NCBI GenBank assembly: GCA_016207825.1
Contig: JACQZI010000011.1
Location: 49,464-113,463 of the forward strand
DNA length: 64,000 nt
Direction of reading: 5' to 3'
Source: Planctomycetota bacterium
GTDB lineage: Bacteria; Planctomycetota; MHYJ01; JACQXL01; JACQZI01
Both the position numbers and the translations under genes were made by a program. Numbering within the stretch: the stretch's first letter is position 1; each line of letters begins with the position of its first letter. Shown piece by piece: positions 8,454 through 15,981 of this stretch. The notes beneath the pieces are model-generated. The model made no database searches. It saw only the letters and a program-made list of their open reading frames with translations, and was not told where the DNA came from.

Positions 8454-9524
8454 TTATTTATCGTTTATTATCTTATTCAACACATTTTCCAACCCGTTTT
8501 TTATCTTGAATGCTGCCTGCCGGTACTCTTCCAGTCCGCCGCCAATCGGGTCGCTGATATCCTCCCCTGAAGGATCAAGCATAAATATCTTTTCTGCCGC
8601 GGCGGGCTTCCAAGCGACCAGGGCCTTAAAATGCTCGCGGGTCATCACATAAATATAAGATGCCCCGTTTAAGAGGTCTAAGGTAACCGGCTGAGAACGG
8701 TGTTGCAAAATATCCGCCCCGTATTCTTTTAAAACCGTTACAGCTTTTTCTGAGGCGGAAATCCCGTATCCAGCGGCAATTCCTGCTGAAAGTATTTTAT
8801 AGCCTTTTCTTTCCAGTTCAGGCTCAGCTACACCCAATTTGCCGGAAAGCATCTTCCTGAATAAGCCTTCCGCCATCGGACTCCTACAGGTATTGCCCGT
8901 GCAGACGAACATGATGATCTTGGTAAGAACAGGCTGTAAGTCTTCTTTTGCGATAGAACCACCGCGGATAATTTCCCATTTATTATCCTGGGTAACCTTT
9001 ATGACCGTGGAAGAAACGCCGTAAAAGGCAGGTCCGCTGTCTATGATTATATCAAGCTTACTGCCGAAGGAATCAATAACCGGCTTGGCCTCTTTGGGAG
9101 GCGGCTGGCCGGCTAAATTAGCGCTTGGGGCAATCACCGGCACACCGCAAAACCTGATTAAATCCCGCGCAACCGGATGGCTCGGAAACCTTATCCCAAT
9201 CGTTTTATCGCTGTCATCATCCAGGACAAGCGTCAAGGGACCGGGCCAGAAAGCACGGGCTAATCGCTCTGCCGTCTCCGGCGGGTTTTTGGCTAATTTA
9301 TAAAAATCATCTATGTCGGAGATGTGATAGGTAAACGGACGGTTCATAGGGCTTTTCTTAAGCTTTCTCAAGCGCTCCACGGATTCCGGCATATCCGCAT
9401 TCACTGCAATGCCGTAAACCGTTTCCGTAGGAAAGGCGACCAGACCACCCTTACGCAAGGCGTCTGCCGCAGGTGCAAGCTCGGATTGACTGTAATTCTT
9501 GGGGTCTATTTTTATTATACGCAT
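8454..9524 (-). CDS. Fusion: threonylcarbamoyl-AMP synthase (Sua5/YrdC) + YwlE-type protein-arginine phosphatase
   Basis: Residues 1-200 are a YrdC/Sua5 domain, which makes threonylcarbamoyl-AMP for the t6A modification of tRNA: GGLVAFPTETVYGIAVNA, KKSPMNRPF, AFWPGPLTLVL, APSANLAG. Residues 203-356 are a low-molecular-weight phosphatase domain with the P-loop VCTGNTCRS (Cys208, Arg214) and the late Asp-Pro general acid (ISDPIGG). The fifth loop residue is Thr212, as in B. subtilis YwlE, where that threonine selects phosphoarginine over phosphotyrosine. There is no Shine-Dalgarno; a promoter ends about 12 bases before the ATG. The fusion partners have no known shared pathway. McsA/McsB, the protein-arginine kinase, is encoded 5 kb away. 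Confidence 0.93.
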   Translation of the reverse strand: MRIIKIDPKNYSQSELAPAADALRKGGLVAFPTETVYGIAVNADMPESVERLRKLKKSPMNRPFTYHISDIDDFYKLAKNPPETAERLARAFWPGPLTLVLDDDSDKTIGIRFPSHPVARDLIRFCGVPVIAPSANLAGQPPPKEAKPVIDSFGSKLDIIIDSGPAFYGVSSTVIKVTQDNKWEIIRGGSIAKEDLQPVLTKIIMFVCTGNTCRSPMAEGLFRKMLSGKLGVAEPELERKGYKILSAGIAAGYGISASEKAVTVLKEYGADILQHRSQPVTLDLLNGASYIYVMTREHFKALVAWKPAAAEKIFMLDPSGEDISDPIGGGLEEYRQAAFKIKNGLENVLNKIINDK

Positions 9525-9911: not shown

Positions 9912-10835
9912 TTATTTCTGCTCTTTCTTCTTCTTTTTTTCCTCTTCCTGTTTTTTCTTTTCTTGTATTTTTCGGTAGTCATCCAAGGCTTTCTTCATGG
10001 CAGTCTTCAGGGCTTTTGTATCCTTGGCTCCCGTAATCCTTAGCAGGGGGCTCTTTTCCAACTCTGTTTCTTCCGGGTCTACGATAAATATTGCTGGGGC
10101 AGAGGAAACGCCCCATTTTTGCATACGCTCAAAGGCTTCTTCATCTTCAGCTTGTTTTTTCTTTTCTTCTTCACTAAGCTCCTTTGCCTCATCAGGCTTC
10201 TTGGGCTTTTCCACTGCTTTCAACTTGACAAATACGAATTTCTCGTTGGTCTTAAGGAGCAGGCGGTCTTCTAAGGCTTTCAGCGTTTTTTCCGAACTCT
10301 TTTGCCCATCAACAAAGGCGATGAAAAGGAGTTTCTTCCCCGCGTTAGCATGCTCCACCCCCTTTTCCACGGAATCCAGCCAGCTAATTTCCTTAGAGGC
10401 ATACAACGCCAGCGCTCTTTTGATTATCTCCAGCGCTTTCCCCGGCGCGGTTTCGTTTTGCATACGGTAAAGGAAAGAATCGCGGGTGATTTCGTTCTCA
10501 TCCGGGTCAACGACAACTATTCCACCTTTTTTGGTGTATTCATCCATTTTATATTTTTCGGCTTCCTTGGGAGAGGCGTTAACCATATGGAATTCATGGG
10601 ACATTTCTATAAACTTTTCGTCGGCAAGCACACGGCTTGCTTCTTCCTGCTGGACTGCTCAGGCATCACAGGTGGAAAATATCAGGACAGGCTTGCCGTC
10701 GGATTGGGCATTTTTAACGGCATCGTCATATTTCTTTTCCCAGCTAATTTTGGGTTTTCCGGGCTTATTTTGCGCCTGCGCCACACCAACCAGCAGGCAG
10801 ATAACGAGCAATATGAGAAACATCTTTTTCCACAT
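9912..10835 (-). CDS. Two-domain thioredoxin-like exported protein, candidate selenoprotein (CxxU)
   Basis: Reading starts at ATG 10835 (MWKKMFLILL), 7 bases after AGGAGG; ATG 10841 is too close to it. A signal peptide ends near AQA. The first thioredoxin-like domain reads KPVLIFSTCDA, then an in-frame TGA at 10661-10659, then AVQQEEASRVLADEKF. The TGA falls exactly where the second Cys of CxxC is expected, giving C-D-A-U. After it the frame stays open for 249 codons, including a second thioredoxin-like domain with the cis-Pro segment SSAPAIFIVD but no CxxC, and a Lys/Glu-rich tail. A SECIS-like hairpin starts 18 bases after the TGA. If UGA is not read as selenocysteine, this is a gene broken by a single stop. 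Promoter and ribosome site are intact. Confidence 0.72.
10624..10640 (-). promoter_or_regulatory. Bacterial SECIS-like hairpin downstream of in-frame TGA
   Basis: On the coding (minus) strand GCAAGC-CGTGT-GCTTGC forms a perfect 6-pair stem with a 5-base loop containing GU. It begins 18 bases after the TGA at 10661-10659, so the loop lies 25-29 bases downstream, within the range used by known bacterial SECIS elements. Confidence 0.6.
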
Positions 10836-10868
10836 AGCCATTCCTCCTTAATGCAGTTCGTGGTTGGT

Positions 10869-10896
10869 ATTATACCTCAATTTTATTTAATGTCAA
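10869..10896 (-). promoter_or_regulatory. Promoter of the candidate selenoprotein gene
   Basis: Minus-strand TTGACA (10896-10891), 16-base spacer, TATAAT (10874-10869): both boxes match the sigma70 consensus. A good ribosome site (AAGGAGG) follows before the ATG. Confidence 0.75.
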
Positions 10897-14398: not shown

Positions 14399-14905
14399 AT
14401 GCTATGTAAAAACTGCAATAAGCGGCCGGCAACCATCCACCTGACTGAAATAAGCCATAATAATGTAAAGCAGGAAATTCACCTGTGCGAGGAATGCGCA
14501 CAGCAAAAGGGGCTTCCTTATAAACTGCAGTTCTCGCTTTCCGAGGTCTTGAGCAGCCTCATCGAGCCCATCATGACTAAGATGGGCAAAGAAAACCTCA
14601 ATATGAAATGCCCGAATTGCGGGATAGATTACGCGACCTTCCAGAAGAAAGCCCGTTTCGGCTGCGCCAAGGATTACGAGGTCTTTAAGAAAGGCATCTC
14701 GCCGATACTGGAAAAGATACACGGCGCTACCCAGCACTATGGCAAGTTCCCGCAGGGAACCTCCGGCTCCGGAATCCTAAAGGAAAAGGAGCTACTGGAT
14801 CTCCACCGCGAACTGGAAAAACTGGTGAAAAGCGAAGAATTCGAAAAGGCGGCTGAAATACGCGATAAGATAAAGAAATTGAAAACCAGGAAGAAAACAG
14901 AATGA
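14399..14905 (+). CDS. mcsA: McsA, activator of protein-arginine kinase
   Basis: The 168-residue protein carries a first zinc module (C3, C6, C30, C33 in MLCKNC and HLCEEC), a second Cys module (MKCPNCGIDYATF, then FGCAKDY) and a C-terminal UVR motif (LHRELEKLVKSEEFEKAAEIRDKI). In B. subtilis McsA binds and activates McsB. Here the gene overlaps mcsB by 4 bases (ATGA), implying translational coupling. The usual neighbours ctsR and clpC are not adjacent. A weak ribosome site (GGAG) lies before the ATG. Confidence 0.93.
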   Translation: MLCKNCNKRPATIHLTEISHNNVKQEIHLCEECAQQKGLPYKLQFSLSEVLSSLIEPIMTKMGKENLNMKCPNCGIDYATFQKKARFGCAKDYEVFKKGISPILEKIHGATQHYGKFPQGTSGSGILKEKELLDLHRELEKLVKSEEFEKAAEIRDKIKKLKTRKKTE

Positions 14906-15981
14906 AAATAGATGATTTGATGAACAAGGTCGGCACTTGGCTGGAAGGAAAAGGCAAGGATTCCGATATCGTCATTTCCTCCCGCATCAGGCTTGCCAGA
15001 AACCTGGATAATTTCGTCTTCCTGACCCTGGCAAATGAGGAGCAGAAAAAGGAAATCGTCGGCTTCATCCATAACGCACTTGTCTCCGCCAAGATAATAC
15101 CGCCCATGCATTATTTCAGCTTCAAAGACCTTACTTCGGCAGACAAGCACCTGCTTCTGGAAAGGCATTTAATCAGCCGTGACCATGCCGAAGCGCCTAA
15201 TGGTGTGACCGGTCAAAATGGTTCCCGCGCTTTGGTTATAAACGATAAAGAGACTTCAAGCATCATGATAAACGAGGAAGACCATCTGAGAATCCAGGGT
15301 TTGAGGAGCGGTTTTCAGTTGGCCGAATTATGGGATGAAATAAACGAACTGGACAGCCGCATGGAAAAACACCTGCCTTATGCCTTTTCTTCCCAGTTCG
15401 GATATCTCACCGCTTGTCCCACTAACGTGGGAACCGGATTGCGTTTCTCTGTAATGGTCCATCTGCCGGCCCTGGTTTTGAGCAAACAGATAGAAAAAGT
15501 CTTCCAGGCATTGACCCGCGTTAAATACACGGTGCGCGGATTCCTGGGAGAAGGCTCGCAATCCATGGGAGATTTTTACCAGATATCCAACCTGGTCACT
15601 TTAGGCCGGGCGGAAAAAGATATTTTAAGCGAGATGGAAAACGTCATCCCGGAAATCATAAAATACGAACGCACCTGGAGGGAGAAACTCTTGAATGAAC
15701 AGGCAAACCAGACAAAGGACCGCATCTGGCGCGCTTACGGAATACTTAAAAACGCCTACACCATCACTTCGGGAGAGACCATGGAACTACTTTCCGCGGT
15801 AAGGATGGGAATCAATATAGGATTAATCAAGGACCTAACTATCGCCCAGGTAAACGAGATGTTTATATTTTCCCAACCGGCGCATCTGCAGAGAATCGCC
15901 GGAGAGGCACTCGGACCGGAAGAGCGGGATATTTTCAGGGCGAGTTATTTCAGGGGAAAACTAACCAAGCCTTCAAAGTGA
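14902..15981 (+). CDS. mcsB: Protein-arginine kinase McsB
   Basis: A 359-residue ATP:guanido phosphotransferase that phosphorylates protein arginines; in Firmicutes this marks proteins for ClpCP degradation. Family motifs are VISSRIRLARNL (about 24-35), the hinge RIQGLRSG, the catalytic-Cys region FGYLTACPTNVGTGLR, the nucleotide-binding TVRGFLGEGSQSMGDFYQISN, and a C-terminal segment like the Bacillus arm. Together with the YwlE-type domain fused to Sua5 at 8.5-9.5 kb the genome carries both writer and eraser of phosphoarginine. The gene ends 9 bases inside the end of the convergent polX. Confidence 0.96.
   Translation: MKIDDLMNKVGTWLEGKGKDSDIVISSRIRLARNLDNFVFLTLANEEQKKEIVGFIHNALVSAKIIPPMHYFSFKDLTSADKHLLLERHLISRDHAEAPNGVTGQNGSRALVINDKETSSIMINEEDHLRIQGLRSGFQLAELWDEINELDSRMEKHLPYAFSSQFGYLTACPTNVGTGLRFSVMVHLPALVLSKQIEKVFQALTRVKYTVRGFLGEGSQSMGDFYQISNLVTLGRAEKDILSEMENVIPEIIKYERTWREKLLNEQANQTKDRIWRAYGILKNAYTITSGETMELLSAVRMGINIGLIKDLTIAQVNEMFIFSQPAHLQRIAGEALGPEERDIFRASYFRGKLTKPSK

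What the first reader, a model, noticed from the sequence alone, without database searches (positions are those of the whole stretch)
9912..10841. Thioredoxin-like gene with in-frame TGA at the second Cys of CxxC and a SECIS-like hairpin: candidate selenoprotein
Seen: consensus promoter, strong ribosome site, signal peptide, then C-D-A-TGA-A in a thioredoxin-like context, with the frame open for 249 codons afterwards. A perfect 6-pair hairpin with a GU-containing 5-base loop starts 18 bases after the TGA. Known: in selenoproteins of thioredoxin-like folds Sec often replaces one Cys of CxxC, and bacterial SECIS loops lie some 16-37 bases after UGA. Inference: UGA is decoded as selenocysteine. 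A point mutation of TGC or TGT to TGA is the alternative.
Basis: partly seen in the sequence, partly recalled or inferred. Interest (0 to 1): 0.8.

Follow-up and report, generated by a model that had tools for sequence, protein, structure and literature searches.

The report
Selenium-containing thioredoxin-like protein in Planctomycetota

Summary
The selenoprotein reading is well supported. The genome has selA, selB, selD (itself with a TGA in GCVGUAGK) and tRNA-Sec. Two paralogues in the same genome and loci in 38 other genomes of the phylum (Planctomycetota) carry TGA at the same alignment column; Cys homologues have the first Cys of CxxC there. All 39 genomes have selA and/or selB over cut-off. 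The published bSECIS criteria are met by 52 of 58 TGA homologues and 3 of 24 Cys homologues. Codons after the TGA are under purifying selection. One correction: the Sec sits at the FIRST (nucleophilic) Cys position, not the second. The usual resolving Cys (+3) is replaced by Gln, and an unusual Cys lies 3 residues before Sec. Nearest filed family: NF041199 (Trx7/PDZ), which also has Cys or Sec at -3 but keeps +3; this gene scores 20 bits against its cut-off of 300. Verdict: a new subfamily of Thioredoxin_7-type selenoproteins, a new variant of a known kind. No protein-level evidence exists.

The parts
9912..10835 (-). selenoprotein CDS, 307 aa incl. Sec59 (Sec60 in P0001 numbering; alternative ATG at 10841 adds 2 aa)
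   Evidence: single internal stop, TGA
10659..10661 (-). Sec UGA codon, at the first-Cys column of the thioredoxin CxxC motif
10668..10670 (-). Cys codon (Cys56), 3 residues before Sec; proposed resolving partner
   Evidence: sequence
10624..10640 (-). bSECIS apical hairpin GCAAGC-CGUGU-GCUUGC, loop 24 nt after UGA
10869..10896 (-). sigma-70-type promoter TTGACA-16-TATAAT, 12/12
10843..10849 (-). ribosome-binding site AAGGAGG, 7 nt before ATG 10835
10773..10835 (-). signal-peptide-like N-terminus MWKKMFLILLVICLLVGVAQA
   Evidence: sequence; cleavage site inferred
10461..10748 (-). N-terminal thioredoxin-like domain (Thioredoxin_7) carrying Sec; approximate limits
10011..10388 (-). C-terminal thioredoxin-like domain without CxxC; approximate limits
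   Evidence: (weak Thioredoxin_2)

Best explanation
The gene encodes an exported (signal-peptide-bearing) tandem thioredoxin-like selenoprotein. SelB binds the CGUGU-loop hairpin just downstream of the UGA and delivers Sec-tRNA-Sec, so the UGA is read as Sec59 (well supported by comparative evidence, not by protein data). Sec59 sits at the N-terminus of the first thioredoxin helix, where the nucleophilic N-terminal Cys of CxxC sits in relatives (shown by alignment and model). It most likely works as a periplasmic or envelope thiol-disulfide (PDI/DsbD-gamma/DsbH-like) oxidoreductase: Sec attacks the substrate disulfide, and the mixed selenenylsulfide is resolved not by the usual Cys at +3 (Gln here) but by Cys56 at -3 (inferred), or by an outside reductant. 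The second thioredoxin-like domain lacks a redox motif and probably serves in substrate binding or dimerisation (inferred). The confidence given is for the selenoprotein reading with Sec at the nucleophile site; for Cys56 as the resolving residue it is about 0.5.
For: Sec machinery in the same genome. TGA at the same column in two same-genome paralogues (65% and 46% identical) and in 38 other Planctomycetota genomes. selA over cut-off in 37 of 39 TGA-bearing genomes against 201 of 353 others, Fisher p 4e-7; the two exceptions have selB over cut-off. bSECIS criteria met by 52/58 Sec and 3/24 Cys homologues. The paralogue stem changes GCAAGC/GCUUGC to GCCAGC/GCUGGC by a compensatory pair of third-position, synonymous changes. 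Purifying selection after the TGA. First-Cys register: ungapped on both sides against WCGPC homologues and aligned to the first Cys of solved ERp18 and DsbH; model pLDDT 82.5 with helix 60-71 starting right after Sec59; PDI, AGR2, DsbH and DsbD-gamma structural matches.
Against: No peptide or selenium-labelling evidence. The single-gene hairpin is only p = 0.03 against synonymous resampling. No Rfam SECIS family matches it (the SECIS_1 model matched none of the control genomes either, so this is uninformative). The role of Cys56 is inferred: a -3 Cys without a +3 Cys is seen only in the three proteins of this genome; NF041199 members and one other locus have -3 together with +3. The TGA homologues are not phylogenetically independent.
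Confidence: 0.9

Rival explanations
1. Pseudogene: a nonsense mutation turned a Cys codon into TGA and the gene is decaying.
For: One substitution makes TGA from TGC or TGT; the hairpin alone is only modestly significant.
Against: The same TGA is in two paralogues and 38 other genomes; purifying selection after it; no other frame damage; perfect promoter.
Confidence: 0.02
2. The whole genome reads TGA as an amino acid (recoded genetic code).
For: In-frame TGA in a conserved gene.
Against: Four of 19 checked genes of the window end in TGA, and none of the other 18 has an internal TGA; a complete Sec system is present.
Confidence: 0.01
3. Functional stop or regulatory readthrough: the UGA mostly terminates, giving a short secreted peptide, with a near-cognate amino acid inserted at low rate.
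For: UGA is a leaky stop, and bacterial Sec insertion can be inefficient (general knowledge).
Against: TGA or Cys codons at the column and a bSECIS enriched only in the TGA forms; the co-occurrence with selA is unexplained by leakiness.
Confidence: 0.04
4. A selenoprotein, but the C-D-A-U string is a true CxxC register with Sec as the second (resolving) residue.
For: The literal motif is CxxU; known CxxU selenoproteins exist (PMC13188914).
Against: Needs paired 3-residue indels; the ungapped alignment on both sides puts U at the first Cys; the model places Sec at the helix N-terminus.
Confidence: 0.06

Closest known systems
NF041199 trx7_PDZ_seleno (Trx7/PDZ domain-containing selenoprotein; listed as CxxU in PMC13188914)
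   Same: Thioredoxin_7 domain in Planctomycetota; Sec at the canonical first-Cys position with Cys or Sec at -3 (FR[C/U]VPUVPC); residues 32-74 align to profile 2-44 over equal lengths (43 each)
   Different: 20 bits against a cut-off of 300; own genome has no member; no PDZ match; +3 Cys lost; second Trx-like domain instead; in the tree it groups elsewhere
UxxC thioredoxin-like selenoproteins (Trx PF00085, thiol:disulfide interchange PF13098; PMC13188914)
   Same: Sec at the first Cys of a thioredoxin fold; 46 of the 58 TGA homologues keep the UxxC form
   Different: Here +3 is Gln and the only nearby Cys is at -3
DsbH / DsbD-gamma / ERp18-AGR2 group (2ju5, 1uc7, 1sen, 9i3f)
   Same: Fold and motif position
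   Different: Those solved proteins have Cys or no Sec; the present protein has Sec and a second thioredoxin-like domain
Planctomycete selenoproteins reported in PMC4807772 (P1, P2)
   Same: Phylum with a Sec system and selenoproteins
   Different: The examples named in its text are FdhA and FmdB; its supplementary list was not readable here

Membership tests
Bacterial selenoprotein gene | In-frame UGA aligned with Cys or Sec in homologues | tested here: met
   TGA or Cys at the column in nearly all homologues; 58 distinct TGA sequences counted
Bacterial selenoprotein gene | bSECIS: loop 3-9 nt, stem 4-16 bp, G in first two loop bases, 16-37 nt spacing, MFE <= -7.5 | tested here: met
   6 bp, CGUGU, +24, -8.2 kcal/mol
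Bacterial selenoprotein gene | selA, selB, selD and tRNA-Sec in the genome | tested here: met
Bacterial selenoprotein gene | Sec present in the protein | not testable with these tools
   needs MS or 75Se labelling
NF041199 Trx7/PDZ selenoprotein | Score over the curated cut-off (300 bits) | tested here: not met
   20.2 bits
NF041199 Trx7/PDZ selenoprotein | PDZ domain | tested here: not met
   no PDZ match; second Trx-like domain instead
NF041199 Trx7/PDZ selenoprotein | C/U-x-x-U-x-x-C motif | tested here: not met
   -3 Cys and Sec present, +3 is Gln
Pfam Thioredoxin_7 (PF13899) | Domain score over the gathering cut-off | tested here: met
   38 bits, cut-off 27
Selenoprotein TsoB (NF045694) | Score over cut-off (805), rhodanese/DsbD fusion | tested here: not met
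   17.6 bits

The most novel reading that the evidence does not exclude
A phylum-wide Sec-thioredoxin radiation in Planctomycetota in which Sec stays fixed at the nucleophilic position while the resolving residue moves around it: +3 (46 of 58), -3 (this gene and two paralogues), -1 (GCUG, vicinal Cys-Sec), or absent. It would give natural active-site types (CxxU with no CxxC; GCUG inside a thioredoxin fold) not filed among known families.
Probability: 0.5. Interest if true: 0.6.

Novelty: new variant of a known kind. Interest (0 to 1): 0.5.

Why it matters
A standard gene finder reads only the part after the TGA as a 239-residue ORF without the active site. The relocated partner residue around a fixed Sec makes a question in redox chemistry testable: whether a Sec nucleophile frees the thioredoxin fold from needing its usual resolving cysteine.

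Tried and rejected
RF00031 (SECIS_1) on the own genome: no match, but none in 14 control genomes either, so uninformative. Rfam scan of the gene with E up to 10: no SECIS family. Single-protein scan of genome contigs found nothing; alignment A1 was too diverse for it; a narrower alignment worked and named the phylum. A recoded genome was considered and rejected. Second-Cys register considered and rejected on ungapped flanks. Grouping of this clade with NF041199 by the shared -3 Cys was tested on a tree of the thioredoxin domain with the motif columns removed: it falls elsewhere, but there are only 98 columns, so common or separate origin of the -3 Cys is unsettled. A pfam call failed on a coordinate slip and was repeated without that sequence.

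Full report
Observation. The feature is real, on the minus strand. Read from ATG 10835 (7 nt after AAGGAGG; ATG 10841 is possible but only 1 nt after it) to TAA 9912, the frame has one internal stop, TGA at 10661-10659, in KPVLIFSTCDA-U-AVQQEEASRVLAD. A 12/12 TTGACA-16-TATAAT promoter lies upstream. A signal-peptide-like N-terminus is followed by a Thioredoxin_7 domain. Numbering: P0001 counts one extra residue, so Sec60 there is Sec59 here.

Is TGA a general sense codon? No. Of 19 window genes checked, four end in TGA and none of the other 18 has an internal TGA.

Sec machinery. The genome (97.6% complete) has tRNA-Sec with anticodon TCA at C10:44713-44805, selB next to it, selA (545.9 bits against a cut-off of 267.9) at C36, and selD beside selA, itself with TGA in GCVGUAGK.

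Homologues. The same genome has two paralogues with the same TGA: C27 (65% identity, CDC-U) and C10 (46%, CGA-U). A profile of 12 members searched in 392 genomes of the phylum, followed by re-reading of the DNA, gave 58 distinct TGA sequences from 39 genomes with TGA exactly in one column. Homologues without TGA mostly have Cys there, the first Cys of WCGPC-type motifs. Loci from genome contigs name the phylum as Planctomycetota; L128 matches the locus from genome G013 over its full length at 100%. selA is over cut-off in 37 of the 39 TGA-bearing genomes against 201 of 353 others, p = 4e-7; G017 and G101, the two without it, have selB over cut-off. Between this gene and its closest paralogue, codons after the TGA show pS 0.85 and pN 0.19, with changes concentrated at third positions (53, 46, 142).

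SECIS. The hairpin GCAAGC-CGUGU-GCUUGC (10640-10624) is kept in both paralogues; in the C10 paralogue one A-U pair is C-G, through two synonymous third-position changes. The published bSECIS constraints (PMC13188914) are met by this gene (-8.2 kcal/mol, 6 bp, +24, CGUGU), by 52 of 58 TGA homologues and by 3 of 24 Cys homologues. Resampling synonymous codons gives mean z -1.4 for TGA and +0.1 for Cys homologues. For this gene alone the stem is p = 0.027 and the energy p = 0.14, so the strength is in the family. The homologues share ancestry and differ in G+C, so the group p-values should be read as descriptive.

Register of Sec. From the conserved P of KP to U is 10 residues, as from P to the first Cys in WCGPC homologues; the stretch from U to the following conserved block is also equal in length. 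Profile alignments to solved ERp18 (2k8v) and DsbH (2ju5) put this column on the first Cys. The AlphaFold2 model (mean pLDDT 82.5, made with TGA read as Cys and 7 homologues) has strand 50-54, then helix 60-71 beginning right after Sec59. So Sec replaces the nucleophilic Cys; the resolving position (+3) is Gln62, and Cys56 in the preceding loop is a separate residue. Among the 58: +3 Cys in 46, -1 in 4 (three GCUG-type and one DCUP), none in 4, -3 alone in 2, -3 and -1 in 1 (the C27 paralogue), +3 and -3 in 1 (L028, CGTUMLC). A tree with the motif columns removed makes the three own-genome proteins one clade (SH-aLRT 99) near the GCUG group.

Comparison with known families. NCBIfam's NF041199 (Trx7/PDZ) is a known selenoprotein family that is common in this phylum (109 of 392 genomes over cut-off). 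Its motif reads FR[C/U]VPUVPC, so its 'CxxU' Cys is at the same -3 place. The present protein scores 20 of the 300 bits needed, has no PDZ match and lacks the +3 Cys, so it is not a member, though it probably works in a related way. TsoB is likewise excluded. The fold search returns PDI-family tandem domains, AGR2, DsbH and DsbD-gamma.

Mechanism. Supported by comparison: UGA conserved for Sec; Sec at the nucleophile site; thioredoxin fold; export signal. Inferred: SelB-dependent decoding in this cell; thiol-disulfide reductase or isomerase activity in the envelope; Cys56 as resolving partner; the second domain as binding platform. The papers I could search do not describe this subfamily, but most subscription papers and supplementary files were out of reach, so absence from the literature is not shown.

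Noticed in passing
L140, L143, L146, L149 (NF041199 members): Trx7/PDZ selenoproteins in Planctomycetota with two in-frame TGA in one motif (e.g. FRUVPUVDC); the 2026 review (PMC13188914) lists one Sec for this family.
   Followed up: partly
L020 (G017:C235), minus strand: Homologue with two TGA six codons apart, GSTUSTSSUAK; a neighbouring homologue has ACDPGSGKMGU.
   Followed up: no
L019, L021, L046: Thioredoxin-like homologues with a vicinal Cys-Sec GCUG motif, resembling the C-terminal GCUG of mammalian thioredoxin reductase but inside a thioredoxin fold.
   Followed up: partly
L050:2470-3747 (own genome, C10): The third paralogue is fused to a C-terminal phosphatidylethanolamine-binding (PEBP, PF01161) domain.
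   Followed up: partly
window 8454-9524 (-): Sua5/YrdC domain fused to a low-molecular-weight phosphatase domain.
   Followed up: partly
window 14399-15981 (+): Overlapping McsA-like (UVR motif) and McsB-like (guanido phosphotransferase, possibly protein arginine kinase) genes; with the phosphatase fusion at 8454 they might form an arginine-phosphorylation pair.
   Followed up: partly
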